A stretch of 60,743 nt of DNA from Acidisoma sp. L85 (lineage in GTDB: Bacteria; Pseudomonadota; Alphaproteobacteria; Acetobacterales; Acetobacteraceae), in contig NZ_LMUQ01000037.1 of assembly GCF_009765865.1 (NCBI RefSeq), positions 153,518-214,260 of the forward strand. The letters run 5' to 3'. This document shows positions 2,151 through 50,581 of this stretch, one piece after another. Position 1 is the stretch's first letter, and every line of letters begins with the position of its first letter. The translations under genes were made by a program, and so were the position numbers. Below the pieces are notes generated by a model that saw only the letters and a list, made by a program, of their open reading frames with translations, was not told where the DNA came from and searched no databases.

Positions 2151-2310
2151 ATGATCGACTACTGAACGGCGACAAGGTTTCGTCATGGCACGCGAAGGCC
2201 TGCCATCCACGCCTTCACCTTCGTGGAGAAAGGAAGCCGTGGATCCTCTGCCTTCGCCGAGGATGACGATACGGAACGAGAACCGTTCAACCAAAGACAT
2301 CGTGCTCTAG
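2151..2310 (+). repeat. MITE-like palindromic repeat, copy 1 of 5
   Basis: Intergenic repeat shared with copies at 31131, 40404, 47243 and 50416. Inner order: a conserved CTGAACGG block, a GTCATGGCA...TGCCATCCACGCC hairpin, then a GGATCCTCTGC...GCCGAGGATGACG hairpin, then GAACCGTTCAACCAAAGACAT, ending at CTAG (2307-2310). This copy has lost the CTAG at its left end and its second hairpin is altered (GATCCTC/GAGGATG instead of ATGCTCGG/CCGAGCAT). The rest of the 2064-2443 gap shows no gene. Confidence 0.75.
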
Positions 2311-2443
2311 GACCTTTGTTAATGCCTTGGCTCGTACCTGCGTGTTTCTGACCAACTGATCAATCCGGCACTCACTGACAGAGCATCAGCCGTCCTTCGG
2401 CGAACTGCGTATGTCCCGAGAATTTGCAGCGTGAAAGCCACCC

Positions 2444-3541
2444 ATGCCCCAGCCGGCGCCGAGCCATGATCTGACGCGGACCGTCTTCGCCGTCCTGATC
2501 ATCGGCATACTCATCATCGTCACGCTTTGGGTGGTGCGGCCCTTCCTGCCCGCTTTCATCTGGGCTGTGACGGTTTCCGTCGCGACCTGGCCGCTGCTGC
2601 AGCGGATGCAGCGGTTGCTGTGGGGAAGTCGTGGATTGGCGGTGGCGGTCATGACGCTGATCGTCCTGATCGTCTTCGTGCTGCCGTTCTGGCTCGCGAC
2701 CATCACCATCCTCGGGCATGCGGGAGATCTGGCGGCCCTGGCGCAGGCCGCAGTCAGCTTCCGGCTGCCGCCGGCGCCGCATTGGCTCGAGACGCTGCCG
2801 CTGGTCGGTCCCAGCTTGGCCGAGCTGTGGCGGGATATCGATGCAAGCGGCCTCAGCAAGCTTGCGCCGACGCTACGGCCCTATGCGGGTTTGGCGATCG
2901 GCTGGCTGCTGGGCAGCATCGGCGGCCTGGGGCGCCTGCTGATCCAGTTCCTGCTGACCGTCGTGATTGTCGCCCTCATCGATGTCCATGCCGAAGCCGG
3001 GGTCCGGCTGCTCGACCGCTTCGGCCGCCGGCTCGCCGGAGAGCGCGGGGAGGAGATGGTGCGGCTGGCCGGGCGCTCCATCCGCGCCGTGGCGATGGGA
3101 GTGATGGTGACCTCGCTGGTCGAGACGCTGATCGGTGGCCTGGGGCTTTGGATAACCGGTGTGCCCTTCGCGGTGGTGCTGACGGCGGTGATGTTCGTGG
3201 TCTGCGTCGCGCAGGCCGGGCCAGGGCTGGTGCTGATCCCAGCCGTGATCTGGATGTTCGTCTACGGCGGCACAACGATGGCGGTGGTTCTGCTGCTGTT
3301 CACGATCCTGGCGATCGTGCTCGACAACGTGCTGCGGCCGGTCCTGATCAGGCGGCAGGCGGATTTGCCGCTGCTGCTGATCCTGGTCGGCGTGCTCGGC
3401 GGGCTTGTCGCCTTTGGCCTTATCGGATTGTTCATCGGCCCGGCCATCCTGGCGGTCAGCTACACGCTGATGCAGACCTGGATGGGCGATCCGCCGGCGA
3501 AGCTCAGCGCGGCCGACGGGAATGCGACGATCGCCCAATAA
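2444..3541 (+). CDS. AI-2E family (PerM/YdiK-type) membrane transporter
   Basis: A 365-residue inner-membrane protein with about eight hydrophobic segments. Two open the protein (residues about 15-50), one is near 65-90, a soluble loop spans about 95-150, and the rest fall between about 150 and 350. The PGLVLIPAVIWMF and DNVLRPVLI stretches fit the AI-2E/PerM family, in which the C-terminal segment has a conserved D-N-x-x-x-P block. Members export autoinducers, act as Na+/H+ antiporters, or have unknown cargo; nothing here decides between these. Single gene between a repeat and the convergent sugE-like gene, 17 bases apart. Confidence 0.85.
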   Translation: MPQPAPSHDLTRTVFAVLIIGILIIVTLWVVRPFLPAFIWAVTVSVATWPLLQRMQRLLWGSRGLAVAVMTLIVLIVFVLPFWLATITILGHAGDLAALAQAAVSFRLPPAPHWLETLPLVGPSLAELWRDIDASGLSKLAPTLRPYAGLAIGWLLGSIGGLGRLLIQFLLTVVIVALIDVHAEAGVRLLDRFGRRLAGERGEEMVRLAGRSIRAVAMGVMVTSLVETLIGGLGLWITGVPFAVVLTAVMFVVCVAQAGPGLVLIPAVIWMFVYGGTTMAVVLLLFTILAIVLDNVLRPVLIRRQADLPLLLILVGVLGGLVAFGLIGLFIGPAILAVSYTLMQTWMGDPPAKLSAADGNATIAQ

Positions 3542-3558
3542 GGCTCGCGACGGGCTTC

Positions 3559-3879
3559 TTACCCCGATGTCGTCAGCCGCAAGCCAATGGTCCCGGCGAT
3601 GATGGCGGCGATGGAGAGAACGCGGGCCACGGTGATCGGCTCGCCGAGGAGAATGACGCCGGTCACCGCCGTTCCGATGGTGCCGATGCCGGTCCAGACC
3701 GCATAGCCCGGACCGAGCGGCAGGCTCTTGAGCGAGAAGCTCAGCGCGAGGAAGCTCATTCCGGAGACCACTAAGGTGATCGCGGACGGCAAGAGGCGCG
3801 AAAAGCCTTGGGATTGCTTCAGGAAATAGGTCCAGACCGGCTCACACAGGCCAGAGAAAACGATCAGCAGCCAGGCCAC
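3559..3879 (-). CDS. SMR family small multidrug efflux protein (SugE-like)
   Basis: A 106-residue protein with four transmembrane helices, the standard SMR length. The N-terminal helix has the family Glu (SGLCEPVW, residue 13), which couples protons and cation or guanidinium. The GPGYAVWTGIGTIG block is the conserved dimer contact region. SugE/Gdx-like members export guanidinium and quaternary cations; here the assignment is by similarity only. It starts at a GTG at 3877-3879 with a poor ribosome site. It ends convergently with the AI-2E gene and lies 27 bases downstream of the CinA-domain gene, so it may be last in that leftward group. Confidence 0.85.
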   Translation of the reverse strand: MAWLLIVFSGLCEPVWTYFLKQSQGFSRLLPSAITLVVSGMSFLALSFSLKSLPLGPGYAVWTGIGTIGTAVTGVILLGEPITVARVLSIAAIIAGTIGLRLTTSG

Positions 3880-3906
3880 CTCAGCGCGACCGCGCGCGCG
3901 TGGTCG

Positions 3907-4659
3907 TCACACCGGCTCTCCCTGAATGGGCGCCAGGCCGAGACCCGCCATGAGGGCGGTGACATCGGCCGTCGCCGCCTCGGCCTCCGTGACATCGGTG
4001 CCCTTGCTGACGATGGCGACGCCATGGCCGGCGTCACGCGCGAAGGGATAGCTGCCGACATCGAGCTCCGGATAGCGGTTCTGGATCGCCTCCAGGCCAG
4101 CGGCGATGGTGCCCTCCATCAGTCCCATCGCATAGACGGCGCGGGAAATGACCGGCTTGCCGCCAGCCAGGGTCGGCGCGAGCGCGTCGAACATCGCCTG
4201 CATGATGCGCGGCACCCCGGCCATGACATGGACATTGCCGATGCTGAAGCCAGGCGCCGCGGAGATCGCGTTTTTGATCAGCGTGGCGCCGCGCGGCATC
4301 GTCGCCATGCGGCGGCGGGCGGCATTGAACTCGCCTTTGGCGTAGCGCGCCTCCATCAGGGCGAAGGCCTCCGGGTGGATTTCCCAGGGCACGCCGAAAG
4401 CCGCCGAGATGCATTCGCTGGTGATGTCGTCATGGGTCGGCCCGATGCCGCCGGTGGTGAAGACATGGTCGAAGGCGGCCCGCACTTCGTTGACGGTGGC
4501 GATGATGGTCGCGGCGATGTCGGGGATGACCCGCACCTCGCGCAGCGGAATACCGATCTCGCCGAGGCGTGTGGCGAGGAACTTGATGTTGATGTCCTGC
4601 GTGCGGCCGGAGAGTATTTCATTGCCGATGACGAGAAGGCAGGCGGTCGGGTTAGGCAT
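3907..4659 (-). CDS. Competence/damage-inducible CinA N-domain (molybdopterin-binding) protein
   Basis: A 250-residue protein made only of the MoCF/COG1058 domain. Seen: ACLLVIGNEILSG at the start, TTGGIGPTHDD with the conserved Gly-rich and Asp pair, and VMAGVPRIM near residue 180. There is no PncC-type C-terminal domain. In other bacteria the domain has ADP-ribose pyrophosphatase activity in CinA. The start ATG at 4657-4659 is preceded by an AGGAGG ribosome site; the longer ORF upstream is Cys-rich junk overlapping the NUDIX gene. A second, full-length CinA lies at 52052, so this is a paralogue. The stop of the GNAT-NUDIX gene lies 34 bases upstream. Confidence 0.85.
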   Translation of the reverse strand: MPNPTACLLVIGNEILSGRTQDINIKFLATRLGEIGIPLREVRVIPDIAATIIATVNEVRAAFDHVFTTGGIGPTHDDITSECISAAFGVPWEIHPEAFALMEARYAKGEFNAARRRMATMPRGATLIKNAISAAPGFSIGNVHVMAGVPRIMQAMFDALAPTLAGGKPVISRAVYAMGLMEGTIAAGLEAIQNRYPELDVGSYPFARDAGHGVAIVSKGTDVTEAEAATADVTALMAGLGLAPIQGEPV

Positions 4660-4693
4660 GGAGCCGGAGCCTCCTTCGGGGTCGTTTTCGTGC

Positions 4694-5755
4694 TTACAGG
4701 AAATCGCGCAGCATCGGCAGCAAGGGTTTATCGGCGGGCAACATAGGGAAATCGGCGAGTTCATCCGCCCGCACCCAGCGCAAGGTTTGCCCTTCCCTTG
4801 CCGATGGAATGCCCTGCCAGCGGCGGCAGAGGAATAGAGGCATGAGCAGATGAAAGCGCTCATAGGCGTGCGAGGCGAAGGCGAAGGGCGCCAGGCTCGA
4901 CCGTGACAGTTCGATACCGAGTTCCTCGCGCAGTTCGCGGACCAGCGTCGCTTCCGGGCTCTCGCCGGGCTCCATCTTGCCGCCGGGGAACTCCCAGAGG
5001 CCCGCCATGGCGCGGCCCTCGGGACGGCGGGCGATCAGCACGCGGGTCTCGGCATCGACCAGGGCACAGGCGGCGACGAGCAGCATGGGCAGCCCGTTCT
5101 CCAGCGCCGGCGGGCTCGGGGCAGGCGTCTCCAAGGCGGCGAGAGCCGGGATATCGGCCCTTGTCGCGGTGAAACTCAGCACCGGCTGCTTGCTGCCGCG
5201 CGCGCGGAACATCTCGCGCCCGGCGCCCGTCTCGCGGAAGCCGATGCGGCGCAGCACGGCGGCGGAGGCGGGGTTGTTGGCCGCCGCCACCGCCTCGACC
5301 TCGTCGAGGTCGAGATTGGCGAGGGCCCAGCGCAACATGCGGCCGGCGGCCTCGGTGGCGACGCCATGGCCCCAGTAGCGCCGGCCGATCCAATAGCCGA
5401 GCGTGGCGCGCCGCTTGCCCTGCACCAGCTTGAGGCCGACCGCGCCGATCAGGAGTTCGCTTCCGTCCTCCCGCCCCGTGATCGCGAGGTGGAAGGCGCG
5501 GCCCTCCCGTCGCTTCTTCACGGCATCGGCGAGCCACTCCTGCGCGTCCTCGAGGGGATAAGGGAAATGGACGGTCTGCAGCATCCGGCAGACCTCCCAG
5601 TCATTGAGGAGGCGGTGGAGGTGTTCCGCATCGGCGGGTTGGAATGGGCGTAGCAGGAGACGCTCGGTGGTGAGGGTCGGATACGACTCCTCCGCCGCGC
5701 TTTCACTCGCGCTGGTTTTCACGCTGAGGGGGGCCTCAGCTCCGATAGCTTCCAT
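4694..5755 (-). CDS. GNAT acetyltransferase - NUDIX (MutT-like) fusion
   Basis: A 353-residue two-domain enzyme. Residues about 25-185 are a RimJ/RimL-type GNAT domain ([17 protein letters not shown] start; [12 protein letters not shown] is the acetyl-CoA loop; [14 protein letters not shown]). Residues about 220-353 are a NUDIX hydrolase: the NUDIX box begins [18 protein letters not shown] and continues REELG, intact. The NUDIX half resembles 8-oxo-dGTP diphosphatase ([10 protein letters not shown] opening). Such fusions are known in alphaproteobacteria; whether the two activities share a substrate is unknown. Its start overlaps the end of argJ by 20 bases, which implies co-translation downstream of argJ. 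Confidence 0.9.
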
Positions 5756-6971
5756 TGATGTCGATGTAGCCGTGCGTGAGGTCGCAGGTCCAGACAGTCG
5801 CGGCGCCTTCGCCGAGGCCGATATCGACGGCGATGAGGATCTCCCGCCCCTTCATATGGGCGACCACCGGGGCCTCGTCATAGCCGGCCACCACGGTGCC
5901 ATCGCGGGCCATCCAGGTGCCGCCGATGCCGACCGCCAGACGGTCGCGGTCGGCGGGTTCCCCGGCTTTGCCGACGGCCATGACGATGCGTCCCCAGTTC
6001 GCGTCCTCTCCGGCGACGGCGGTTTTGACCAGGGGCGAATGGGCGATGGCGAAGGCGATGCGCTTGGCCGAGATGGCAGAGACAGCGCCCGTCACCTCGA
6101 TGCGGATAAGCTTCTGCGCGCCCTCCCCATCCCGCGCGACTTGCAGGGCGAGATCGGCGAGCACGGCGTTCAAAGCCTCGGCGAAACCCGCAAGGGCGGG
6201 GTCGTCTGCGCTGCTGACCGCCGGATGCGCCGCCTGGCCGGTGGCGAAGAGCAGAAGGGTGTCGCTGGTCGAGGTGTCGCTATCGACTGTGATGCAGTTG
6301 AAGCTGGGCGCGACGCCGCGCTCCAATAGCGTCTGCAGCACGCTCGCGGGGATCGCGGCGTCGGTGGCGACGAAGCTCAGCATGGTCGCCATGTCGGGGG
6401 CGATCATGCCGCTGCCCTTGGCGATGCCGTTGATGGTGACCGCCGTGCCGCCGATGCGGGCGCGGCGGGTGCTCGCCTTCGGAAACGTGTCGGTGGTCAT
6501 GATGGCGCGGGCCGCGTCTTCCCACCCGTTCTCGCCGAGGGCGGCGTGGAGCGCGGGGAGTGCCGCGGTCAGGCGCTCATGCGGCAGAACCTCGCCGATC
6601 ACCCCGGTCGAGGCGACGAAGACCGCGGCGGGCGCGCAACCGGCGAGTGCGGCAGCGGCCTCGGCGGTGGCGCGCACGCTTTCGGCGCCGGCGCGGCCCG
6701 TAAAGACATTGGCGTTGCCGGCATTGACCACCAGCGCGCGGGCGGCGCCGGCGGGCAGCACCTCCCGGCACCAGTCGATCGGCGCGCCGGGGCAGAGGTT
6801 GCGGGTGAAGACGCCAGCGACAGTGGTGCCGGGCGCGAAGGCCATCATCATGAGGTCGCGGCGCCCGCGATAGCGAATGCCGGCCTCCGCGGCCCCAAGC
6901 CGGACGCCCGGCACGGGGCCGAGCAAGGGCAAGGGAACCGCGAGGGGCGAGACCTCGGTGATCTTGGCCAT
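5736..6971 (-). CDS. argJ: Bifunctional glutamate N-acetyltransferase / ornithine acetyltransferase (ArgJ)
   Basis: Transfers acetyl from N-acetylornithine to glutamate (the cyclic arginine route), and in bifunctional forms also uses acetyl-CoA. The autocleavage site is visible as [13 protein letters not shown]: cleavage before Thr196 would give alpha and beta chains, with that Thr as the new N-terminal nucleophile. TGVIGEVLP (residues about 122-130) is the oxyanion-hole region, and the C-terminus ends in the expected Asn/Ser-rich INGSYRS. At 411 residues it has full length. It is downstream of the parvulin gene by 13 bases and overlaps the GNAT-NUDIX gene. The presence of argE nearby means both linear and cyclic deacetylation routes are encoded. 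Confidence 0.95.
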
Positions 6972-6984
6972 GGCGCCGGCGCGG

Positions 6985-30032: not shown

Positions 30033-31085
30033 ATGACGCCGTTCCGTTCGCTCCTCGCGCTCTGTCTGAGCGCCACCGCTTTGGCGGCGCTGCCCGCCGC
30101 ACGGCCCGCCCAGGCCGCCGATCCCGGCATGCTGCATATCTTCAACTGGACCGACTACACGTCTCCGGACATGCTGAAGAAGTTCACCAAGGAGACGGGC
30201 ATCAAGGTCACGCTCGATACCTATGATTCGAACGAGACTTTGCTCGCCAAGCTCAAGGCCGGCACGACGGGCTACGATATCGTGGTGCCCAGCAGCGACT
30301 TCGTGAAGATCTTCGTGAGCCAGGGGCTGCTGCAGAACGCCGATGTCGCCAGTATGGCGAACTTCAAGAATTTGGAAGAGCGCTGGAAGACCCGCGCGTG
30401 GGATCCGCAGGCCGAATACACCGTGCCATGGCAATGGGGCACGACGTCCTTCATCTATGACACCAAGGTCTATCCGGGGCCGGTCGATAGCCTCGAGACG
30501 CTGTTCAAGCCGCCGGCGGTGTTCAAAGGTCAGGTCGGCATGTTCGGCTCTCCGAGCGAGGTCATCAACCTCGCGCTGATCTATCTCGGCAAGCCGGTCT
30601 GCAACTCGAACCCGCCCGACCTGAAGGAAGTGAATGCGCTGCTGGAGGCGCAGAAGCCTTTCGTGAAGGTTTATAACTCGGACGGCATCGAGGATCGTAT
30701 GGCATCGGGCGAGACCACGATGCATGAGGTTTGGTCCGGCGATGGCGAGCGTGCGCGCGTGCAGCGGCCGACGCTGAAGTATGTCTATGCCAAGGAAGGC
30801 GGCATCGGCTGGATGGACAACCTCGCGATTCCGGTCGGCGCGCCGGATGTCGAGAACGCGAAGAAGTTCATGAACTTCATGATGGACCCGGAAAACGCGG
30901 CGCTTGAGAGCGATTTCGCGGGATACCAGAATGCTGTGGTTGGTTCGAACAAGTTCCTCAAGCCGCAGCTTGCCTCGGCCCCGGAGTTCAATCCGCCCGC
31001 CGATTATAAGATCACCTTCGCGCCGGGCTGCCCGCCGGCCGCGACGAAGGATTACGACCGGATCTGGACGCTGCTGCGGAAGTAG
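30033..31085 (+). CDS. potF: Polyamine-binding periplasmic protein 1 (PotD/PotF-like)
   Basis: Delivers polyamine to PotABC in the periplasm. A 350-residue protein with a signal peptide ending in ARPAQAAD. Mature start LHIFNWTDYTSPD carries the Trp/Tyr ligand-stacking residues; DIVVPSSDFV, PWQWGTTSFIYD and VWSGDGERARVQ follow. The Trp and Asp of VWSGD correspond to PotF residues that clamp the amine end, and GWMDN retains a further Asp. So canonical diamine or spermidine binding is expected. It closes the operon; a strong hairpin follows. About 60 percent or more of residues match the second binding protein at 33031 by eye. Confidence 0.93.
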   Translation: MTPFRSLLALCLSATALAALPAARPAQAADPGMLHIFNWTDYTSPDMLKKFTKETGIKVTLDTYDSNETLLAKLKAGTTGYDIVVPSSDFVKIFVSQGLLQNADVASMANFKNLEERWKTRAWDPQAEYTVPWQWGTTSFIYDTKVYPGPVDSLETLFKPPAVFKGQVGMFGSPSEVINLALIYLGKPVCNSNPPDLKEVNALLEAQKPFVKVYNSDGIEDRMASGETTMHEVWSGDGERARVQRPTLKYVYAKEGGIGWMDNLAIPVGAPDVENAKKFMNFMMDPENAALESDFAGYQNAVVGSNKFLKPQLASAPEFNPPADYKITFAPGCPPAATKDYDRIWTLLRK

Positions 31086-31094
31086 GTGGTTCAG

Positions 31095-31126
31095 GCCTGC
31101 CCGCCTCATGTGTGAGGCGGGCAGGC
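31095..31126 (+). terminator. Strong hairpin after the pot operon
   Basis: A perfect 14-base stem: GCCTGCCCGCCTCA (31095-31108) with TGAGGCGGGCAGGC (31113-31126), loop TGTG. It starts 10 bases after the binding-protein stop. No T-run follows; it probably ends or stabilises the pot mRNA and lies immediately before repeat copy 2. Confidence 0.6.
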
Positions 31127-31130
31127 TGCA

Positions 31131-31287
31131 GGACATCTATTGTTCGAACCGTTCTCACACCATTCCGTCATGCTCGGCGAAGGCAGAGCATCCAGGTCTT
31201 GCTTACGGCGCCAAGGAAGGACGTGGATGGCACGCCTTCGCGTGCCATGACGGATCTTGAATTACGGTTCGAGAATAGATCATCACG
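31131..31287 (-). repeat. MITE-like palindromic repeat, copy 2 of 5 (inverted)
   Basis: Same element as at 2151, on the other strand: GGACATCTATTGTTCGAACC at one end, GTCATGCTCGGC...GCAGAGCATCCA hairpin, then GTGGATGGCACGCC...GCGTGCCATGACGG hairpin, ending GATCATCACG. It lies between convergent genes, and the TGA stop of the amidohydrolase falls inside its conserved TGATGATC end. No CTAG remains at its ends. Confidence 0.75.
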
Positions 31288-32962
31288 CGCCCGTCCGGTA
31301 AGCCACAACCCCATCGCATATCGTCATCACAGGACGCAACTCTCTCACCGCCTCGGGCGCCGTCTTCACGATGTCGCCTGACAGGATCACGATATCCGCG
31401 AGATAGCCTGGCGTGAGCTGGCCCTTGCGGTCCTCCATGAACTCCACCCATGCGCTGTCTCGCGTATAAGCGGCGAGTGCCTGATCCAGGCTTGGGCGGT
31501 GGTCGGGCAGGTCCGCGCGCCACGGCTTGCGTGTCAGGGCGTCGCCGATCGAGGCGAGCGGGTCGAGCGGGGAAACCGGCCAGTCGGTCGCGAAGACCAG
31601 CTTGGCGCCGGCGTCGCGCAGCGTCTTCCAGGCGTAGGCGTAGGGCCACTTCGCCTCCCCGATGCGGGAGATCGTGGGCTGGAGCGGCAGACCGGCCGAG
31701 CCGGGCGGATGCGGCGGCTGCATCGAGGCAACAACTCCGAGGGCGGCGAAGCGCGGCACGTCGTCCGGGCTCACCACTTCGATATGCTCGATGCGGTGGC
31801 GGCTGTCTCGCGCGCCATTCGCCTCGCGCGCCGCCGCGTAGCCGTCGAGCACGATGCGGACGGCGCCATCGCCGATCGCATGGACAGCGATCTGCAATCC
31901 GCGACGATCGGCCTCGATCGCGACATCCCGGAAGTGTTCGGCGGTGAACAGGGGCTCGCCGCGCCAGCCGGGGCGGTCGGCGTAATCGTTCAGCATCACG
32001 GCGGTCCATGAGTCGAGAACCCCATCGACGAAGACCTTCACGAAGCCGGATTGCAGCCGGTCATCGCGGTAGTCCTCGTTCATCCGGGAGGCTCGGGCCA
32101 ATGCGTCGAGCGGCATGAACTCCTTCATGTGGAAAGGCACGCGCACCCGGGCGGTGAGGTCGCCAGTGGCGTCGATCTCGCGCAGCAGGTCGAGGGTGTA
32201 GCGATTGCCGTCCATGTTTTGGATCGAGGTGATGCCATGTTGCGCGCAGTAATCGAGGCCGCGCTTTAACGTCGCGCGGTCAGCAGCGCGTTCGGCCTCG
32301 GTCAGGCTCGCATCGGGTTCAAGGCCGGCGATACCGAGCCTGGCGCGTGCGCCGGCGCGGTCGAGCCCATAGACCGGATCGAAGGCTTCGCGCTCCCGCA
32401 GCTCGCCCTGGGCGAGACCGCCCGCTTCCATCACGATTTCATTGCCCGGACCGAGCTTGCGGCCGTGCAGGATGCCGGCCTGGTCGAGCGCGATCGTATT
32501 GGCCCAGGCGGTGTGAGAGTCGGGTGCCAGAAGCATCAGCGGGCGGTTGGGCAGGATGCGGTCGAGGTGATGGCGGCTGAGTGGCTCGGTCGCTGACAGG
32601 ATGGTGTAGTCGGCGGATTGGCCGATGATGAGGCCGTCCCCGGGATTGGCGCGGTCGAAATCCTGGATCGCGCGTTGTAGGTCGCCGAAGCCTTGGACGC
32701 CGCGAAGCTGGAGATGGGACAGCGCTGCCGCGCCGAGGAAGAGGTGCATATGGCCTTCGTTGAAGCCGGGGAGCACGGTGCCGCCCCCCGCCTCGATCAC
32801 GCGGGTTCGCGGGCCGCGCAGGGCGCCGATCTCCTCCGCGGTGCCAACGGCGGCGATGCGGTTGGCGATGATGGCGATCGCTTGGGCCGTGGGGCGTTGG
32901 GGGTCCATCGTCAGTATTTGACCGCCCTGGATGATGATGTCCGCCGTATCGCTCACCGCCAT
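31283..32962 (-). CDS. YtcJ-type metal-dependent amidohydrolase
   Basis: A 559-residue amidohydrolase-superfamily enzyme. LPGFNEGHMHLFLGAAAL has the His-x-His metal pair, VHAIGDGAVRIVLDGY and HRIEHIEVVSPDDV have further metal His residues, and VFATDWPVSPLDPL the catalytic Asp. Family members hydrolyse N-acyl or formamide bonds; the substrate here is unknown. The start ATG at 32960-32962 is preceded by AAAGGGG. It is convergent with the pot operon and divergent from the second binding protein, so it is not co-transcribed with either but lies within the polyamine region. Confidence 0.9.
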   Translation of the reverse strand: MAVSDTADIIIQGGQILTMDPQRPTAQAIAIIANRIAAVGTAEEIGALRGPRTRVIEAGGGTVLPGFNEGHMHLFLGAAALSHLQLRGVQGFGDLQRAIQDFDRANPGDGLIIGQSADYTILSATEPLSRHHLDRILPNRPLMLLAPDSHTAWANTIALDQAGILHGRKLGPGNEIVMEAGGLAQGELREREAFDPVYGLDRAGARARLGIAGLEPDASLTEAERAADRATLKRGLDYCAQHGITSIQNMDGNRYTLDLLREIDATGDLTARVRVPFHMKEFMPLDALARASRMNEDYRDDRLQSGFVKVFVDGVLDSWTAVMLNDYADRPGWRGEPLFTAEHFRDVAIEADRRGLQIAVHAIGDGAVRIVLDGYAAAREANGARDSRHRIEHIEVVSPDDVPRFAALGVVASMQPPHPPGSAGLPLQPTISRIGEAKWPYAYAWKTLRDAGAKLVFATDWPVSPLDPLASIGDALTRKPWRADLPDHRPSLDQALAAYTRDSAWVEFMEDRKGQLTPGYLADIVILSGDIVKTAPEAVRELRPVMTICDGVVAYRTGA

Positions 32963-33030
32963 CCCCTTTGAAACCTGGCGCGGCGCAGATAGCATGGTTC
33001 AGGAATTTTTAAGAGATGAGGTGCCCCGCC

Positions 33031-34080
33031 ATGACCAGTTGGAAATCCTGGCTAGGTCTGACAATCGCCGCAGCAGCCTTCGCCGTGCCGGCGTTTCAGG
33101 CCGCGCGGGCGGCGGATGCCGGGGTGCTGCATATCTACAACTGGACCGATTATACGGCGCCCGATCTCCTCACGAAATTCACCAAGGAAACCGGAATCAA
33201 GGTCTCGCTCGATACCTATGATTCGAACGAGACGCTGCTTGCCAAGCTGAAGGCGGGGGCAACGGGCTATGACGTGGTGATCGCATCGAGCGATTTCGTG
33301 CCCATTCTGATCGACCAGAAGCTCATCCAGCCTGTCGATGCCGCGAGCATGAGCAATTTCAGCCATCTGGCGCCGCAGTGGAAGGCACGGACCTGGGATC
33401 CGAAGGCGGAATACACGGTGCCGTGGCAGTGGGGCACGACCTCGTTCGTGTATGACACCAAGGTCTATCCCGACCCGGTTGACAGCATGGCGACGCTGTT
33501 TACCCCGCCTGCCGTGTTCAAGGGCCAGATCGGCATGTTCGGCTCGCCGAGCGAGGTGATCGGCATGGCGCTGGTTTATCTCGGCAAGCCGCCCTGCAAT
33601 GAGGATCCCACGACCTTGAAGGCGGTGATGGCGATGCTGGAGGCGCAGAAGCCGTTTGTGAAGGTCTATAATTCGGATGGAATTCTCGACCGCATGACAT
33701 CCGGCGAGACAACGATGAGCATGGAGTGGTCAGGCGGCGCCGCCCGCATCCGTGCCGCGAAGCCGACAGTGCGTTACGTTTATCCGAAAGAAGGCATTGT
33801 CGGCTGGATGGATAATCTCGCTGTGCCGGTCGGCGCGCCCGATGCCGAGAACGCGAAAAAGTTCCTCAACTTCCTGATGGATCCGCAGAACGCCGCCATC
33901 GAGACCAATTTCGCTGGCTATCAGAATGGCGTTGATGGCAGCAATGCTTTCGTCAAGCCGGAGATCGTCAACGCGCCTGAATACAATACGCCGAAGGATG
34001 AGAAGCTCAGCTTCACGCCGTCCTGCCCCGCCAAGGCGACGAAGGATTACGATCGGATCTGGACCCTGCTGCGCAAGTAA
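33031..34080 (+). CDS. Polyamine-type periplasmic binding protein 2, altered ligand site
   Basis: A 349-residue paralogue of the protein at 30033, with signal peptide ending in ARAADAG and the same blocks LHIYNWTDYTAPD, KETGIKVSLDTYDSNETLL, PWQWGTTSFVYD and GWMDN. The site VWSGDGERA of paralogue 1 is here MEWSGGAARI: the acidic residue that in PotF contacts the ligand amine is Gly. The gene after it encodes an acetylpolyamine deacetylase, 14 bases on, so this protein may prefer acetylated polyamines and share PotABC. GAGGTG 7 bases before the ATG at 33031 decides the start over 33016. Confidence 0.9.
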   Translation: MTSWKSWLGLTIAAAAFAVPAFQAARAADAGVLHIYNWTDYTAPDLLTKFTKETGIKVSLDTYDSNETLLAKLKAGATGYDVVIASSDFVPILIDQKLIQPVDAASMSNFSHLAPQWKARTWDPKAEYTVPWQWGTTSFVYDTKVYPDPVDSMATLFTPPAVFKGQIGMFGSPSEVIGMALVYLGKPPCNEDPTTLKAVMAMLEAQKPFVKVYNSDGILDRMTSGETTMSMEWSGGAARIRAAKPTVRYVYPKEGIVGWMDNLAVPVGAPDAENAKKFLNFLMDPQNAAIETNFAGYQNGVDGSNAFVKPEIVNAPEYNTPKDEKLSFTPSCPAKATKDYDRIWTLLRK

Positions 34081-40403: not shown

Positions 40404-40570
40404 CTAGACCGTGATGATCTAATAGTGAGCCGCGACCCAAAGAGCCGTCGTGGCACGAAGGCGTGCCATCCACGCCTGCCTTCGTGAAGCAAGCAAAGGC
40501 GATGCCCGGCCTTCGCCGAGCATGACGTGGTGGAATGAGCGCGGTTCGAATCAAAGACATCCCGCGCTAG
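40404..40570 (+). repeat. MITE-like palindromic repeat, copy 3 of 5
   Basis: CTAG to CTAG (40404-40407 and 40567-40570), 167 bases. Order: GACCGTGATGATCT, GAGCCGCG, GTGGCACG...CGTGCCATCCACGCC hairpin, long CACGCCTGC.../...GCAAAGGCG stem, GCCCGGCCTTCGCCGAGCATGACG hairpin remnant, GCGGTTCGAATCAAAGACAT. The right-hand CTAG supplies the TAG stop codon of the leftward membrane gene that begins at 41112. Confidence 0.85.
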
Positions 40571-41112
40571 TTCGTTGATTTATTCCCCGCAAGCTCCGCG
40601 CCATCGACAAAGAAAACTCTCCGCAGCCGGTCTCCGCCGATCGCTTCGTTCAGGACGCGGAAACCGAAGAACGGAATCAGAATCAGAAGCATGATGAGGA
40701 AACCGGCAAGGGTTTCCTCTAACCTTCGGCCGAAGAGATCACCGAGCGAAGCGGAGATCGACAGACCGTGGAACAGCCCGACGACCACCTCCTCGAGGCT
40801 GGTGAGGATCACGAGCAGCACCAGGAAGGCGGCTGCCTTGTGCAGGGTCGGCCAGATCAACGGACGGTCCTTGTAGCGTTCGCCGAGTTTCAACCCATTG
40901 CCGATCAACATGAATTTCGCAAGAAGCAGGGCCTTGACGATGGCGATGCCCCAGAGAGCGGAGTGAATGCCATGCGTGTGCAGCACCGCCGCTTTCATCA
41001 GGATAACCGCGCCGAGCGTCACGTAGAGATAGGCCGTCAGGATCACGAACTCTCGTAACTCGTGCACGGCCCGCTGATTCAGCGTCGCTTTCGCGTGGGT
41101 CTCGGTTGCCAC
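40567..41112 (-). CDS. Unknown integral membrane protein
   Basis: A 181-residue inner-membrane protein with about four helices: near 22-45 (FVILTAYLYVTLGAVILMK), 55-72, 90-115 (AAAFLVLLVILTSLEEVVVGL) and 135-155 (LAGFLIMLLILIPFFGFRVL). An N-terminal THAKATLNQRAVHELREF and a polar C-terminus lie outside. The TS-LEEVVVG acidic pair sits inside helix three. I recognise no family. Its stop codon is the CTAG end of repeat copy 3. Single gene, 189 bases before the end of the PLD gene upstream. Confidence 0.75.
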   Translation of the reverse strand: MATETHAKATLNQRAVHELREFVILTAYLYVTLGAVILMKAAVLHTHGIHSALWGIAIVKALLLAKFMLIGNGLKLGERYKDRPLIWPTLHKAAAFLVLLVILTSLEEVVVGLFHGLSISASLGDLFGRRLEETLAGFLIMLLILIPFFGFRVLNEAIGGDRLRRVFFVDGAELAGNKSTN

Positions 41113-45001: not shown

Positions 45002-45007
45002 AGTTTT

Positions 45008-45454: not shown

Positions 45455-45473
45455 GCGATCGGCGCATCGAACC

Positions 45474-46340: not shown

Positions 46341-46523
46341 TGTGAAACCATAGCCGCGACGGTCATGCGGCGGCATGCAAGTCATGCGGCCCTCATGCTT
46401 GTCAATGTCGCAGCTGGAGAACGAATAGTTACGCTTTACGATCTTGGCACATGAAAGCATAGCCTTCGCAGCGAGCGGGTTCAGGGTGCATGATACGCCG
46501 TCCCGTCAGCGAAAGGTTAGACC

Positions 46524-47246
46524 ATGTCCGCCACCGAGGCCCCGACTTACGTCGTCGACGAACGCAACCGCGTGAAGCGCCGGCATGACCGTGGGTCCTA
46601 CGATCACGAGACGGTCCACCGGCTGCTCGATGCCGCGGCACTCTGCCACGTCTCCTATGTCGTCGATGGTCTGCCCTACTGCACGCCCACCCTCTTCTGG
46701 CGCGAGGAAACGCGGCTCTACTGGCACGGCAGCAGCGCGAGCCGCATGTTGCGAAACCTTTCGGACGGACAGCCGGCCTGCCTCACGGTGACGCATCTCG
46801 ACAGCCTCGTTCTCGCGCGCTGCGGTTTCAACCACTCGGCCGACTACCGCTCGGTGATGGCTTTTGGGCGGGCTCGGCTCGTCACCGAGCCCGAGGAAAA
46901 ACGCCGCGCCCTTGTGATGATGGTGGATCGTTTCTTTCCTGGCCGCACGGCACAGTTGCGCGCGAGCACGGACCAGGAAATCAAGGCGACGTCAGTTGTG
47001 ACGATGGAAATCGAGCGGGCGTCAGCGAAAATCCGCGCCAAGGGCGTTGCGGATGACGATGAAGATTACGCGCTCCCGATCTACGCGGAGCGCCTTCCGG
47101 TCCACACCGTCATTGGCGAGCCTGAGGCGTGCCCCCGGTTGCTATTGGGTGTCGAGCGGCCGGCGAACCTTGCGGGCTATCTGGCCGAACGGCCGCTCGA
47201 GGAGGCACTCGCGGAGGCCTATGCCGAGGCTTACGCGCGCGGCTAG
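46524..47246 (+). CDS. Pyridoxamine-5'-phosphate-oxidase-family flavin-binding protein
   Basis: A 240-residue protein with the FMN-binding split barrel: VKRRHDRGSYDHETVHRLLD, CHVSYVVDGLPYCTPTLFW, RLYWHGSSASRMLRNL, DYRSVMAFGRARLV and a C-terminal segment EIKATSVVTMEIERASAKI with ELPVH-like RLPVHTVIGE. Similar genes are common in proteobacteria; the substrate is unknown. The TAG stop lies in the left CTAG of repeat copy 4, so the protein end AYARG may have been reset by repeat insertion. Confidence 0.87.
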   Translation: MSATEAPTYVVDERNRVKRRHDRGSYDHETVHRLLDAAALCHVSYVVDGLPYCTPTLFWREETRLYWHGSSASRMLRNLSDGQPACLTVTHLDSLVLARCGFNHSADYRSVMAFGRARLVTEPEEKRRALVMMVDRFFPGRTAQLRASTDQEIKATSVVTMEIERASAKIRAKGVADDDEDYALPIYAERLPVHTVIGEPEACPRLLLGVERPANLAGYLAERPLEEALAEAYAEAYARG

Positions 47247-47426
47247 GACAGGATGACCTGATACTGAACGGCGAACCAAAGATCCGTCATGGCATGCGAG
47301 GCGGGGCGGCCCCCCGCATGCCATCCACGCCTTGCCTTCGTCACGCAAAGCAAAGGCGTGGATGCTCGGCCTGCGCCGAGCAGGACGTGGAGGAATGAAA
47401 GGTTCAGACCAGAGATATCCGGCTAG
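47243..47426 (+). repeat. MITE-like palindromic repeat, copy 4 of 5
   Basis: CTAG to CTAG (47243-47246 and 47423-47426), 184 bases, the largest copy; one hairpin carries an extra GC-rich insert (GAGGCGGGGCGGCCCCCCGC). Both CTAG ends provide TAG stop codons: for the rightward flavin protein and for the leftward isomerase gene. Inner blocks GATACTGAACGGCGAACC, GTCATGGCATGCG...CGCATGCCATCCACGCC, GGCGTGGATGCTCGGCC...GCGCCGAGCAGGACGTGG and GGTTCAGACCAGAGATATCC match other copies. Confidence 0.88.
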
Positions 47427-48478
47427 GAAAGACCCAGCATGCGCTTCACCCCGGAACGGCCAGCCTCCTGATCAATGAAGTCCTCAAAGGTCGAGGTACT
47501 CACTTTGATCAGATGATCGGCGATAAACTTGGCCCCTTCCCGCGCGCCGTCCATGCGGTCCTTGATGGCGCATTCCCATTCTAGAACCGCCCATCCGTCG
47601 AAACCATGAACTGAGAGCTGCGAGAAGATCGAACGGAAGTCGATGTCACCATCGCCAAGCGAGCGGAACCGTCCGGCGCGATCCGGCCAATCCGAGAAGC
47701 CGGAATAGACGCCTTGCTTCGCCGTTGAGCGCAACTCGGCGTCCTTAACGTGAAAGGCTTTGATTCGCTCGTGATAGACGTCGATGAAGCCGACATAGTC
47801 CAGGTTCTGCAGGCGGAAATGCGACGGGTCATAGGCGATGCAGCAACGCTTATGACCATCGAGCAGATCCAGGAACCGCTCGAAGGTTGTGCCATCGAAA
47901 AGATCCTCGCCGGGATGGAGCTCGAAACAGGCATCCACGCCATGCTCCTCATGCTCGTCCAGGATTGGGCGCCACCGGCGCGCGAGTTCCTCGAATGCCT
48001 CCTTGATCAGGCCAGGGGGGCGAGGCGGCCAAGGGTAGACATAGGGCCAGGCGAGACCACCCGAGAAGGTGACGTGCGACTTGAGACCCAGATTGCGGCT
48101 CGCTCGGGCACCGAACTTCACCTGTTCCACCGCCCATTGCTGACGCGCCGCGGGATTGCCTCGCACATGAGGAGCCGCAAACGCATCAAAGGGTTCGTCG
48201 AAGGCTGGATTGACCGCCACGAGCTGCCCTTGCAGATGGGAGGCGAGTTCGGTGATCACCACGCCGCTTTTATCCGCGGTAGCCTTGAGGTCGTCGCAAT
48301 AGGCCACGCTCTCGGCGGCTTTTTGCAGGTCGATGAGGCGCGTATCCCAAGCGGGAATTTGGACGCCCTTGTAGCCAAGTGACGCGGCCCAGCCACAGAT
48401 TTCAGCGAAACTATTGAACGGCGCTTCATCGCCGGCGAATTGAGCCAAATAGATCGCAGGTCCCTTGATCGTCTTCAT
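47423..48478 (-). CDS. Sugar phosphate isomerase/epimerase (AP endonuclease 2-type TIM barrel)
   Basis: A 351-residue TIM barrel of the xylose-isomerase-like family (IolE/IolI type). GPAIYLAQF and ASLGYKGVQIPAWD begin it; FELHPGEDLF, CIAYDPSHFRLQ, KAFHVKDAEL and AVLEWECAI carry the metal-binding Glu/Asp/His set. Such enzymes isomerise or dehydrate inositol or sugar derivatives. No inositol operon is nearby. GGGGGAG precedes the ATG at 48476-48478, so I do not use the longer frame. The stop comes from repeat copy 4. Confidence 0.88.
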   Translation of the reverse strand: MKTIKGPAIYLAQFAGDEAPFNSFAEICGWAASLGYKGVQIPAWDTRLIDLQKAAESVAYCDDLKATADKSGVVITELASHLQGQLVAVNPAFDEPFDAFAAPHVRGNPAARQQWAVEQVKFGARASRNLGLKSHVTFSGGLAWPYVYPWPPRPPGLIKEAFEELARRWRPILDEHEEHGVDACFELHPGEDLFDGTTFERFLDLLDGHKRCCIAYDPSHFRLQNLDYVGFIDVYHERIKAFHVKDAELRSTAKQGVYSGFSDWPDRAGRFRSLGDGDIDFRSIFSQLSVHGFDGWAVLEWECAIKDRMDGAREGAKFIADHLIKVSTSTFEDFIDQEAGRSGVKRMLGLS

Positions 48479-48630
48479 TTTTTTCTCCCCCGGGCGAGGT
48501 TGCCGCATACGCCGGCTATTTGCAAAGCAATGTAGACCGGTTTTCCGGGGGCGAACCAGAACACGGCCACGCGCGCGGCCACTCAATGAAACCTGTGCAG
48601 CGGTTCGGTGGCAGCGGCACGTCAGCGAAG

Positions 48631-48957
48631 TTACGGCAAGGACGCTGCCCGCAAAGCCGCCTCATATGCCATCCGCACCCACTTCGCCATGATATCGGGG
48701 TTGTCGAAGGCGTCTTCTGGGATCGACCAGTAAGGCATTTTGACCGCCTTCCTGGTCTTGTTCTCGTACGCCCATTGCGTCGCGCCGGCGGCCTCGAACT
48801 TCGGCGCGCTGAGGGCGTCTGCCTTCAGCAGGATCTCGTCACTGACTTCGAGCGCCAGGATATGGCCCCTGTGATAGATGCCTTTGCCACCAAACATGCG
48901 CCGGATGGTGATCGGGCCTAGGGAAGAGAACATCTCCTCTATTTCAGCGTTGTCCAT
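48631..48957 (-). CDS. TfoX/Sxy N-terminal domain protein
   Basis: A 108-residue protein with the Sxy N-domain: MFSSLGPITIRRMFGGKGIYHRG, LALEVSDEILLKAD, KFEAAGATQWAYENKTRKAVKMPYWSIPE. TfoX proteins activate competence genes with CRP in gammaproteobacteria; alphaproteobacterial single-domain forms have unknown roles. It follows the methyltransferase gene by 41 bases on the same strand. Confidence 0.88.
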   Translation of the reverse strand: MDNAEIEEMFSSLGPITIRRMFGGKGIYHRGHILALEVSDEILLKADALSAPKFEAAGATQWAYENKTRKAVKMPYWSIPEDAFDNPDIMAKWVRMAYEAALRAASLP

Positions 48958-48998
48958 CTGGCTTTCTCATAGGGCGCGGACCTGGTGGGCCTTTCGCT

Positions 48999-49766
48999 TC
49001 AGGGCTTACGAAACAGCAGCACGAAGTTGTCAGCCTCGCCGACCGCTGCATAGCGGGCGTGGTCTTTCTCGCCCAAGGCGAAAGTCGGCGGCAGTGTCCA
49101 GACGCCTTTCGGCCAATCCGTCGTGTCTTTCGGATTGGCGTTGATCTCGGAGCTGCCGACGAAGACGAAACCGGCCTGTTGCACCAGGGCGATGGCGTAA
49201 TCCTGGCGTACATAGCCGCTGACCGCATGCGGATCCTGCGGCCGGTCGGGGCGAGCGCGATGGTCCTCGACGCCCAAAACCCCGCCAGGCTTCAGGGCGA
49301 CGAAGAAGGCCGCGAGCATCTGGCTCGCCTCATTCGTCGCCATCCAATCATGCAGATTGCGGAACGTGACGACGACATCGGCCGAGCCCCGCGGGGCGAT
49401 GGTGTAATGGCTGTCCCCTAGCTCGGTGGTTTCGGCTTTTGGAAAGCGGGTGCGAAACGACGCTGCCTGCTTGCCGGGCGGCAGGGCGGCGACGTAGTGT
49501 CCGTGGCCCCGCAGGTAAGGCATCAGGATTTCCGTCCAATAGCCGCCGCCGGGCCATATCTCGACCAGCTTTGCGTCCGGCTTCACGCCGAAGAAGCGGA
49601 GTTCCTCCGCCGGATGACGCACCGGGTCACGCGCGATGAAGGCGGCGCTGCGTGCCGGCGAAGCGATGGCCTGCTGGAGGGCGTTGTCGTCGCTTTGCGC
49701 CAGGGCAGCTGTCGCCACGGACATCAGTGCCGCCGTGCCGGCGAGCAGTCGTGCAATAGAGGTCAT
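48999..49766 (-). CDS. Exported class I SAM-dependent methyltransferase-like protein
   Basis: A 255-residue protein with a signal peptide (MTSIARLLAGTAALMSVATAALAQS), then a methyltransferase fold of the COG4798 group. LVEIWPGGGYWTEIL is motif I (Gly-x-Gly with acidic start), VVVTFRNLHDWM is motif II/III-like, and LKPGGVLGVEDHRA is motif IV. S-adenosylmethionine in the periplasm is unusual, so it may be inactive or bind another cofactor; the group is widespread in proteobacteria. The ATG at 49764-49766 opens the signal. Confidence 0.85.
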   Translation of the reverse strand: MTSIARLLAGTAALMSVATAALAQSDDNALQQAIASPARSAAFIARDPVRHPAEELRFFGVKPDAKLVEIWPGGGYWTEILMPYLRGHGHYVAALPPGKQAASFRTRFPKAETTELGDSHYTIAPRGSADVVVTFRNLHDWMATNEASQMLAAFFVALKPGGVLGVEDHRARPDRPQDPHAVSGYVRQDYAIALVQQAGFVFVGSSEINANPKDTTDWPKGVWTLPPTFALGEKDHARYAAVGEADNFVLLFRKP

Positions 49767-49930
49767 GGATTGGTTATCTACCTCTCGGTCGCGGGGATCC
49801 AGGGGCGCCACGATTACGGGGCGTGATAGGCGCCTTGCGCCTGGCACAGCCGGGGTTACGCTTTGTAGCGTCCCGGGTTGCGAATTTCGGGCTACCGCTT
49901 GTCCCCATTGGGGGCGGAGCAGAGAAAGCG

Positions 49931-50170
49931 ATGCATCCGGAGTTTCGAACGGTCCTATGGTTCGTCGCGAGGCTTCTCGCGGGGCCGGACCACCCTGAAG
50001 ATGGCGGGTTCGACAACGAGCCGCCCAGCCGGCGAGGCGCCGTCATCGCGCTCGTGTTCCTTGTGCTGCTGGGCTTGTTCGGGCTCTGGATCAGTCGCGC
50101 ATTGCGAGATACCGGCAAGTTGCAGGATTGTGTCATGCAGGGGCGGACGAACTGCGTGCCCAGCCAATAA
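49931..50170 (+). CDS. Small one-helix membrane protein of unknown function
   Basis: A 79-residue protein: soluble head (FRTVLWFVARLLAGPDHPED), basic SRRGAVIALVFLVLLGLFGLW helix near residues 37-55, and a small tail with two Cys residues (LQDCVMQGRTNCVP). A Cys-containing tail of this form recurs in other alphaproteobacterial small proteins I recall, but I cannot name a family. A GGAG-rich region stands before the ATG at 49931; the longer frame from 49823 is unsupported. The next gene starts 18 bases later, probably co-transcribed. Confidence 0.7.
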   Translation: MHPEFRTVLWFVARLLAGPDHPEDGGFDNEPPSRRGAVIALVFLVLLGLFGLWISRALRDTGKLQDCVMQGRTNCVPSQ

Positions 50171-50188
50171 CCAATGCGGGAGTGAACC

Positions 50189-50419
50189 GTGACCGAGTTC
50201 GAGAATGAGCTGATGGACCGGCTGCAAACGATCGCGGATCAGAAATTCGGCGGCCATCTGACGATCCTGAAATTCACCACGAACTGGCGCATTTGCTTCG
50301 GCTCCCCGGAGGGGGAGGATCTCTGGAACGACATTCAGAAGATGCCGGTTGGCCGTAGTTTCGCGGAGGCCGCGCAGAAGGCGGTCAATGATCCGCGTAC
50401 TTTTGGAGTGGAAGCCTAG
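50189..50419 (+). CDS. Small soluble protein of unknown function
   Basis: A 76-residue protein. ENELMDRLQTIADQKFGGHL looks helical; TILKFTTNWRICFG forms a strand pair; LWNDIQKMPVGRSFAEAAQKAV is another helix. The form resembles small HicB-like or 'DUF'-type proteins but I recognise none. The GTG start at 50189 has GGGAG before it. The TAG stop is part of the CTAG at the left end of repeat copy 5. Confidence 0.7.
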   Translation: MTEFENELMDRLQTIADQKFGGHLTILKFTTNWRICFGSPEGEDLWNDIQKMPVGRSFAEAAQKAVNDPRTFGVEA

Positions 50420-50581
50420 GGGGATGTCTTCTGTTGAAACCCTCGCTATCCCACCACGTCATGCTCGGCGAAGGCCGAGCATCCACGCCTGCTTTCGTCA
50501 CGCAGGCAAGGCGTGGATGGCATGCCTTCGCATGCCATGACGCATCTTTGCCTCACGGTTCAGTATCAGATCATAACGCCG
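50416..50581 (-). repeat. MITE-like palindromic repeat, copy 5 of 5 (inverted)
   Basis: Inverted relative to copies 1, 3 and 4. CTAG (50416-50419), GGGGATGTCTT, then GTCATGCTCGGCGAAGGCCGAGCATCCACGCC hairpin (23-base core perfect), CTGC/GCAG stem, GGCGTGGATGGCATGCC...GCATGCCATGACGC hairpin, and GGTTCAGTATCAGATCATAACG. CTAG at its start gives the TAG stop of the small gene at 50189. It lies between convergent genes. Confidence 0.85.

What the first reader, a model, noticed from the sequence alone, without database searches (positions are those of the whole stretch)
2151..50581. Dispersed palindromic repeat ending in CTAG that supplies stop codons
Five copies (2151, 31131, 40404, 47243, 50416) share two inward blocks near their ends, GATGATCTGATACTGAACCG-like and GATGTCTTTGGTTCGAACC-like, which are imperfect copies of each other, as terminal inverted repeats would be. 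Inside are paired hairpins GTCATGGCA/TGCCATCCACGCC and GTGGATGCTCGG/CCGAGCATGACG. In copies 3, 4 (both ends) and 5 the terminal CTAG forms the TAG stop of the gene next to it: membrane protein at 41112, flavin protein 46524, isomerase 48478, small gene 50189. In copy 2, a TGA stop lies in the conserved TGATGATC. Insertion at CTAG-containing stop codons (with CTAG possibly the target duplication) would explain this. Related RIME/REP-like palindromes are known in alphaproteobacteria; stop-codon targeting is the inferred new point.
Basis: partly seen in the sequence, partly recalled or inferred. Interest (0 to 1): 0.75.

Follow-up and report, generated by a model that had tools for sequence, protein, structure and literature searches.

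The report
Mini-transposons that land on stop codons
Five copies of a short, gene-less repeat that looks like a small transposon sit in this window, mostly just behind genes, and its ends are built so that when it drops into a stop codon the gene still stops at the same place.

Summary
The five copies are real. Each is 161-178 bp: two hairpins of the known CGTC-REP kind, head to head, inside two ~40-bp arms ending CTA|GAGC...GCTC|TAG. I found 90 copies in 1.45 Mb fetched of this 6.4-Mb genome and 16 in 1.06 Mb of a same-genus genome. The host genome carries IS630-family (Tc1/mariner) insertion sequences with closely similar TA-flanked ends (36 of 52 positions). Best reading: a non-autonomous IS630-type MITE with a CGTC-REP heterodimer as cargo, inserted at YTAR sites. 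The duplicated target is TA, not CTAG; the G of the terminal TAG is the element's own first base, so landing in a TAA or TAG stop rebuilds a TAG stop exactly. Of 119 ends with gene context, 36 are precisely a gene's stop codon. Six of six usable relatives without the element end at the same place or two residues away, five with TAA. In copy 4 one CTAG shared by two convergent stops was split into two TAG stops. Stop-codon 'targeting' is mostly target availability (34 elements seen, about 24 expected). The parts are known kinds; the composite and the stop-preserving geometry did not turn up in my paper searches. Transposition was not shown.

The parts
2144..2307 (-). Copy 1 of the element (164 bp). 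TA at 2308-2309; the other side reads CA at 2142-2143 (decayed). Between two co-directional genes, no called stop codon at its ends.
31126..31290 (+). Copy 2 (165 bp; no TA on either side, limits from the profile). The TGA at 31283-31285 inside its right end is the stop of the gene on the minus strand.
40407..40567 (-). Copy 3 (161 bp). TA at 40405-40406 and 40568-40569, CTAG on both sides. TA 40568-40569 with base 40567 is the TAG stop of the gene 41112..40567 (minus strand).
47246..47423 (-). Copy 4 (178 bp). TA at 47244-47245 and 47424-47425. Both ends are TAG stop codons of the two convergent genes.
50419..50581 (+). Copy 5 (163 bp). TA at 50417-50418 and 50582-50583. The left end is the TAG stop of the gene 50189..50419.
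50457..50489 (+). REP unit 1 of copy 5 (CGTCATGCTCGGC-GAAG-GCCGAGCATCCACGCC), CGTC outward, 9-bp stem
50510..50542 (-). REP unit 2 of copy 5, CGTC outward on the minus strand; with unit 1 a head-to-head heterodimer
46524..47246 (+).
47423..48478 (-). 45 of 80 fetched relatives have this length, counted from the aligned start.
40567..41112 (-).
50189..50419 (+). Small gene (76 aa) ending in the TAG at the left end of copy 5
31283..32962 (-). Gene that ends in the TGA inside copy 2

Best explanation
The repeat is a non-autonomous miniature transposon (MITE) of the IS630/Tc1-mariner type that carries a head-to-head heterodimer of CGTC-REP hairpins as cargo. An IS630-family transposase, of the kind whose copies are still in this genome, cuts at the ends (GAGC...GCTC) and pastes the element into the TA of YTAR sites, best CTAG, duplicating TA. 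Because the element begins with G when read from either end, TA|G is a TAG in one frame. An insertion into the TA of a TAA or TAG stop therefore gives the gene a TAG stop at the same codon, from whichever side the gene comes. Insertions inside genes and in front of genes are lost by selection; those in stop codons and between convergent genes survive. Shown here: the anatomy, ends similar to those of a resident IS630 element, an excess of TA at the ends, the exact coincidence with stop codons, unchanged gene ends in relatives without the element, and a mostly fixed arrangement of arms and cargo. Inferred: that such a transposase moves it, that TA is duplicated on insertion, and that selection explains where copies survive.
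For: IS copies L109:4893-5938 and L107:7491-8527 have TA|GAGC ends that match the MITE arm consensus at 36 of 52 positions, against 23-27 of 52 for nine other related IS630 copies; one further relative (L128) also scores 36. Transposase parts of L109 hit NCBIfam IS630 (C-terminal part 144.7 bits, cut-off 100; N-terminal part 64.9, below the cut-off for a whole protein; together profile positions 4-298 of 299) and Pfam DDE_3. Scanning 2.84 million positions, 15 of the 29 that match the IS left end at 18 or more of 26, and 6 of the 16 for the right end, are ends of this element. TA at 67 of 120 ends against 388 of 1620 random spacer points; at the 83 non-stop ends TA 34 and YTAG 19, against 24% and 5%; at ends facing gene starts TA at 12 of 18. 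Stop codon exactly at the TA at 36 of 119 ends, 28 of them TAG, against 24% TAG among called genes; without boundary refinement 23 of 101 ends with a 3' gene. Five genes stop inside an element against 36 at the edge; random truncation would put about 1 in 3 at the edge. Six of six usable orthologs in G003 end at the same residue (5) or two earlier (1), 5 with TAA where this genome has TAG in 5 of the 6. Copy 4: the joined flanks give one CTAG that stops both genes at 240 and 351 aa, as now. Arms and cargo have one orientation in 40 of 51 full copies, the reverse in 1, undecided or two like arms in 10.
Against: Arms match the IS ends only at about 70%, so the present IS may not be the exact mover. 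Neither of the two IS copies shows one uninterrupted transposase frame: the frames change at a run of A in L109 and further upstream in L107, so an active mover is not shown. TA is absent at 53 of 120 ends. REP halves are 92-93% alike between copies but arms only 60%, with no correlation between arm and core divergence; a unit that moved as one and drifted neutrally would not look so. By my threshold 33 of 90 copies have neither arm, some of them only diverged, and a dimer in G006 has none. In G003 the arms differ and a pattern search showed no evident IS with matching ends, though the listing was cut. No empty site within one species could be compared, so the TA duplication rests on statistics, not on a before/after pair.
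Confidence: 0.82

Rival explanations
1. The elements are steered to stop codons, for example by the translation or termination state or by hairpins behind genes, beyond what the YTAR preference and selection explain.
For: 34 elements at stops against about 24 expected from YTAR availability in the same spacer types, P about 0.009; 28 of 43 in convergent spacers against 0.44 expected, P about 0.004.
Against: The excess is modest, and in unidirectional spacers there is none (6 of 20 against 0.28). TA is kept by selection at stops but decays elsewhere, which by itself inflates the stop count (inference). The boundary search favours YTAG within 6 nt; with raw boundaries 23 of 101 ends are exact.
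Confidence: 0.12
2. A DDE element of the IS5 type with a 4-bp YTAR duplication, so that CTAG itself is duplicated, as the first reader suggested (IS5 target recalled, not looked up).
For: Both ends often read YTAR: 19 left and 19 right of 51 on strict alignment columns, 8 on both sides.
Against: Left and right 4-mers agree no better than shuffled (P about 0.15-0.19); copies with CTAG left and CTAA right occur (3 of 51); IS copy L109 has CTA|G left and TA|A right; the transposase between such ends is IS630.
Confidence: 0.04
3. Plain REP/BIME repeats with no transposon in them; the outer blocks and CTAG are old flanking sequence, and the stop codons are there because REPs usually lie just behind genes.
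For: The hairpins fit the CGTC-REP superfamily, said to have no transposase (PMC3733652); dimers without recognisable arms exist.
Against: Arms are shared by 51 full copies with sharp outer limits (flanks 27-28% identical, arms 60%), carry IS630-like ends with an excess of TA, and the stop lies at the arm length in a sharp peak for well-armed ends (19 of 69 at 41-42 nt from the REP).
Confidence: 0.08
4. REP dimers inserted many times independently into the middle of older IS630 MITEs already sitting at stop codons.
For: Cores 92-93% alike within arms 60% alike, no correlation; REP dimers inside palindromes are described for H. neapolitanus and A. variabilis (PMC3733652).
Against: The orientation of the heterodimer relative to the two different arms is fixed in 40 of 51, reversed in 1, undecided in 10, and only one armed copy without cargo was found (L111:10291-10367).
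Confidence: 0.1

Closest known systems
CGTC-tagged REPs (Di Nocera, De Gregorio and Rocco 2013, PMC3733652; parts 1-5 of 8 of the text read, figures not held)
   Same: Terminal CGTC, A and T as first stem pairs, 9-bp stem, 4-nt loop, CCA tail, head-to-head heterodimers, behind convergent or unidirectional genes.
   Different: That paper finds no transposase for CGTC REPs. Here the dimer lies inside ~40-bp arms with IS630-like ends, and the arms, not the REP, supply the TAG.
RUP of Streptococcus pneumoniae / IS630-Spn1 (passages of PMC2229807)
   Same: Short MITE with ends like a resident IS630 element, inserted at TA, intergenic.
   Different: No REP dimer cargo and no landing on stop codons in the passages seen. 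RUP sequence was not compared here.
IS630 and ISY100 (passages of PMC2170065; Tenzen and Ohtsubo 1991 seen only as a title in its reference list)
   Same: Insertion at TA with TA duplication; the title records preference for TA in CTAG; DDE transposase.
   Different: Those are autonomous elements; their ends were not compared here.
REP dimers inside palindromes in H. neapolitanus and A. variabilis (PMC3733652)
   Same: REP dimers within a larger palindrome.
   Different: There no transposon is named for the palindrome in the parts read; sequences not compared here.
RIME elements of Rhizobium
   Same: Intergenic palindromic elements of similar size (recalled).

Membership tests
IS630-family MITE | Ends shared with an IS630 element of the same genome | tested here: met
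   Similar, not identical: 36 of 52 end positions against 23-27 of 52 for nine other related IS630 copies, one relative equal; genome scan with the IS ends
IS630-family MITE | TA duplication at the ends | tested here: met
   TA at 67 of 120 ends against 388 of 1620 random spacer points and 84 of 597 outside positions; statistical only, no intraspecific empty site
IS630-family MITE | Short and without transposase gene | tested here: met
   161-178 bp in the window
IS630-family MITE | Moved in trans by the transposase | not testable with these tools
   needs an experiment
CGTC-REP superfamily | CGTC at one end, A and T first in the stem, 8-9 bp stem, 4-5 nt loop, CCA tail | tested here: met
   Consensus and pair counts in 51 copies; definition read
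CGTC-REP superfamily | Head-to-head dimers | tested here: met
CGTC-REP superfamily | Assignment to family CGTC-1 to CGTC-4 | tested here: inconclusive
   Family consensus is in a figure that is not held; a 9-bp stem with a 4-nt loop fits none of the stated combinations exactly
GTAG REP / RAYT system | Y1 transposase (PF01797) in the genome | tested here: not met
   0 matches in the own genome; the control search found it in 5 of 14 named genomes
GTAG REP / RAYT system | GTAG foot next to the hairpin | tested here: not met
   The hairpins are footed by CGTC
RIME | Sequence similarity to the RIME consensus | not tested
   no RIME sequence available in the tools
Rfam RNA families | Match at gathering score | tested here: not met
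   0 matches in the window

The most novel reading that the evidence does not exclude
CGTC-REP dimers, thought to lack a transposase, spread in this genus as cargo of IS630 MITEs, and the first base G seen at the readable ends of this IS630 clade makes stop codons a safe landing class: insertion into TAA or TAG, from either side and even into a CTAG shared by two convergent genes, leaves the proteins unchanged. This would be a general rule by which TA-inserting elements with G-first ends gather at gene ends.
Probability: 0.45. Interest if true: 0.7.

Novelty: new variant of a known kind. Interest (0 to 1): 0.52.

Why it matters
It offers a mover for one lineage of CGTC REPs, a question left open by the 2013 survey, and a simple reason why some small repeats sit exactly on stop codons: the target TA plus the element's G rebuilds TAG. 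That turns 'REPs lie behind genes' into a testable insertion rule, and predicts that TAA stops become TAG where such an element lands. It also warns that a gene ending in TAG at the edge of a repeat need not be truncated.

Tried and rejected
A 4-bp CTAG/YTAR duplication (IS5-like): disfavoured by the 4-mer agreement test and by IS copy L109. A RAYT mover: no PF01797 match in the genome. Gene truncation as the source of the edge stops: disfavoured by 36 edge against 5 internal stops and by the orthologs. Independent insertion of REP dimers into resident MITEs: disfavoured by the orientation. Armless dimers as decayed armed ones: stops lie 38-46 nt from the REP at 27 of 69 well-armed ends (19 of them at 41-42), 1 of 12 intermediate ends and 12 of 49 ends with a poor arm match, some of the last still with readable arms; left open. 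The ortholog test of the 240-aa gene was uninformative, since C-termini vary among the 11 relatives read. The 181-aa gene had only distant relatives, 41% identity or less. No match of copy 5 in the plasmid collection. In 123 other loci the element profile found only L314, which is the window's own copy 4 fetched again; a REP pattern run in the same script found nothing even there, so it was too strict and tells nothing. The organism could not be named: the one genome-contig scan used the 351-aa protein, kept the best 80 of 586, and found relatives at 69% identity or less. A pattern search in G003 (118 matches, about as many as its control, first 100 listed) showed no evident IS with the arms of its own copies. 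In the G003 ortholog test 8 of 36 proteins had a tblastn hit; 2 (from L016 and L113, 40% identity or less) were left out and 6 used. About 1.45 Mb of the own 6.38 Mb and 1.06 Mb of G003 were examined, with gene calls by a simple model of my own. Scripts failed on errors; 55 and 63 were rerun, and the readings of 77 as 79.


Full report
Observation. A profile started from copy 5 and iterated finds 86 non-redundant hits, 51 of them full length, in about 1.33 Mb of the host genome, and 90 at E <= 0.001 in the 1.45-Mb set used later. In the window plus three 400-kb contig pieces (1.26 Mb) there are 59 at E <= 0.01, which by extrapolation means about 300 in the 6.38-Mb genome (inference). I could not name the host; the type of REP and the best homologs of one gene suggest an alphaproteobacterium (inference).

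Anatomy. The consensus of 51 copies reads YTA|GAGCGGGATGTCTTTGGTTTGAACCG... REP 1, spacer, REP 2 ...CGGTTCAGTATTAGATCATCACGC(C/T)C|TAR, with identity falling to 27-28% outside. REP 1 is CGTCATGCTCGGC-GAAG-GCCGAGCATCCACG; REP 2 has another stem and stands head to head to it, CGTC outward on both. Stems vary with matching changes, for example C-G to T-A in 9 of 51 copies at one pair of REP 2. Copy 5 as RNA folds at -69.7 kcal/mol against a mean of -51.1 for shuffles, z -4.9. Mean pairwise identity is 92-93% in the REP halves, 71% in the spacer and 60% in each arm.

The mover. Searching the own genome for CTAGAGCNNGATG (one mismatch allowed; about as many matches as the control pattern overall) gave, among the 11 exact matches, two facing each other 1.04 kb apart on contig C30. 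Between them lies an IS630-family element (L107:7491-8527); a second copy lies on C82 (L109:4893-5938). The ends are TA|GAGCAGGATGGTTTTGGCTTGAA and, at the other end, TA|GAGCGTGATGCATTTAGCTTGAA. In L109 the transposase is read in two overlapping frames that change at a run of A; in L107 the change lies further upstream. Neither copy has one uninterrupted frame; whether L109 uses programmed frameshifting or is broken I cannot say. The two parts of L109 match profile positions 4-121 (64.9 bits) and 120-298 (144.7 bits; cut-off 100) of NCBIfam's IS630 model of 299 positions, and the second matches Pfam DDE_3. Related IS630 copies occur in 14 of 40 genomes searched, the own one included; paired TA|GAG ends could be read in 12 of 30 fetched loci, several others being cut by contig ends, and in one more on closer look (L132). 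The MITE arms match the own IS ends at 36 of 52 positions and those of one relative (L128) equally, but nine other IS630 copies at only 23-27. In a scan of 2.84 million positions, 15 of 29 with at least 18 of 26 matches to the IS left end are ends of this element and one more is a cargo-free copy (L111); for the right end 6 of 16. No RAYT-type transposase (PF01797) was found in the genome.

TA, not CTAG. With a search allowing 6 nt either way, TA stands at 67 of 120 determinable ends and YTAG at 45 of 120. The same search gives TA 84 and YTAG 14 of 597 at five positions 40-200 nt outside (mostly coding), TA 388 and YTAG 83 of 1620 at random points of element-free spacers, and TA 441 and YTAG 147 of 1057 centred on stops without an element. 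At the 83 ends that are not stops, TA is at 34 and YTAG at 19, so the motif is not merely a by-product of stop codons. Left and right 4-mers agree no better than shuffled ones. IS copy L109 reads CTA|G on one side and TA|A on the other, as a TA duplication in CTAA would. ISY100, an IS630-family member studied in vitro, inserts at TA and duplicates it, and a title in that paper's reference list records preference for TA in CTAG by an IS630-associated transposon (passages of PMC2170065).

Stop codons. Genes were called with a simple codon-pair model of my own. Of 119 ends with gene context, 101 face a gene's 3' end and 18 a gene start; 36 coincide exactly with a stop codon at the TA position: 28 TAG, 5 TAA, 3 TGA. 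With the raw profile boundary 23 of 101 are exact, against 4 at each neighbouring position. TAG is 272 of 1138 stops called and 28 of these 36. Of 65 elements with a determinable end, 34 touch a stop, 2 of them at both ends. None of 90 elements lies wholly inside a called gene; 56 of 88 classified lie between convergent genes, against 175 of 1137 spacers.

How much of this is targeting? YTAR sites at stop codons make up 68 of 155 YTAR sites in convergent and 135 of 489 in unidirectional element-free spacers up to 600 bp. For 43 convergent and 20 unidirectional elements this predicts about 24 at stops; 34 were seen, P about 0.009. Availability, together with the loss of insertions in genes, explains most of it. 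The small excess may come from TA being kept where it is a stop and lost where it is not (inference).

Preserved, not created. If insertions truncated genes, about a third should stop exactly at the edge; 36 stop at the edge and 5 inside the element. Of 36 edge-stopped proteins, 8 had hits in 1.06 Mb of the same-genus genome G003; 2 weak ones were left out. In the 6 others the relative shows no element there and ends at the same residue (5) or two residues earlier (1); its stop is TAA in 5 and TGA in 1, where this genome has TAG in 5 and TAA in 1. One pair reads GTC TAA in the relative and GTC TAG AGCGGG here. For copy 4, joining the flanks with one TA gives a single CTAG that stops the left gene at 240 aa and the right gene at 351 aa, the same lengths as with the element; 45 of 80 homologs of the 351-aa protein have that length counted from the aligned start. 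Orthology of that gene in G003 (61% identity) is not backed by gene order.

A second species. G003 has 16 hits in 1.06 Mb with the same REP core and other arms; stops lie 38-46 nt from the REP edge at 8 of 17 ends with a 3' gene, the distance seen here at 27 of 69 well-armed ends. An IS630 end in a third genome (G027, L130) matches six G003 arms at 19, 18, 17, 13, 10 and 8 of 26 positions and the two arms of this genome at 15 and 13. A pattern search showed no evident IS with such arms in G003 itself. In G006 a REP dimer stands without arms, so the dimer is probably independent of the arms.

One unit. The two arms differ, and REP 1 stands next to the same arm in 40 of 51 copies, next to the other in 1; 10 are undecided or have two left arms. 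This speaks for one composite ancestor that moved as a unit. That the REP halves are far better conserved than the arms, with no correlation between the two, is not explained; selection on the hairpins or conversion between copies would do.

Known and new. The REP dimer is a CGTC REP as defined in PMC3733652, which states that GTAG REPs often give TAG stops and that CGTC REPs have no known transposase. IS630-driven MITEs are known (RUP, passages of PMC2229807). A 2025 REP survey (passages of PMC12306157) treats closeness of REPs to stop codons in E. coli as translational control. The combination found here, and the rule that TA plus a first base G rebuilds a stop, did not turn up in my ten searches, which cover open-licence papers only and of which I saw listings. 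I therefore call it a new variant of a known kind.

Noticed in passing
window 31095-31127: A hairpin (CCTGCCCGCCTCA...TGAGGCGGGCAGG, from the sequence), probably a terminator, lies directly against the left end of copy 2.
   Followed up: no
window 30033-31085 and 33016-34080: Two neighbouring genes look like paralogs: 300-nt stretches at 30091/33086 and 30767/33762 are 71% and 73% identical.
   Followed up: no
51 full copies, consensus: REP halves 92-93% identical between copies, arms only 60%, no correlation between the two: some force keeps the hairpins alike.
   Followed up: partly
L111:10291-10367: The only copy found with both arms but without the REP dimer; a CGTC remains at the junction.
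   Followed up: partly
for example contig C45:93038-93143 of the own genome, L112:19182-19282: REP dimers without recognisable arms; some have two CTCGG-type halves, unlike the usual armed heterodimers.
   Followed up: partly
L109:4983-5925 and L107:7491-8527: Both IS630 copies have the transposase in two frames, changing at a run of A in L109 and further upstream in L107.
   Followed up: partly
window, 47 CTAG sites: CTAG is rare in the window: 47 sites against about 205 expected from base composition by my own arithmetic, so ends at CTAG stand out.
   Followed up: no
L130 (G027) and L116, L117, L126 (G003): An IS630 end of one genome resembles some MITE arms of another species (19, 18 and 17 of 26), hinting that the arms of each lineage follow a different IS630.
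   Followed up: partly
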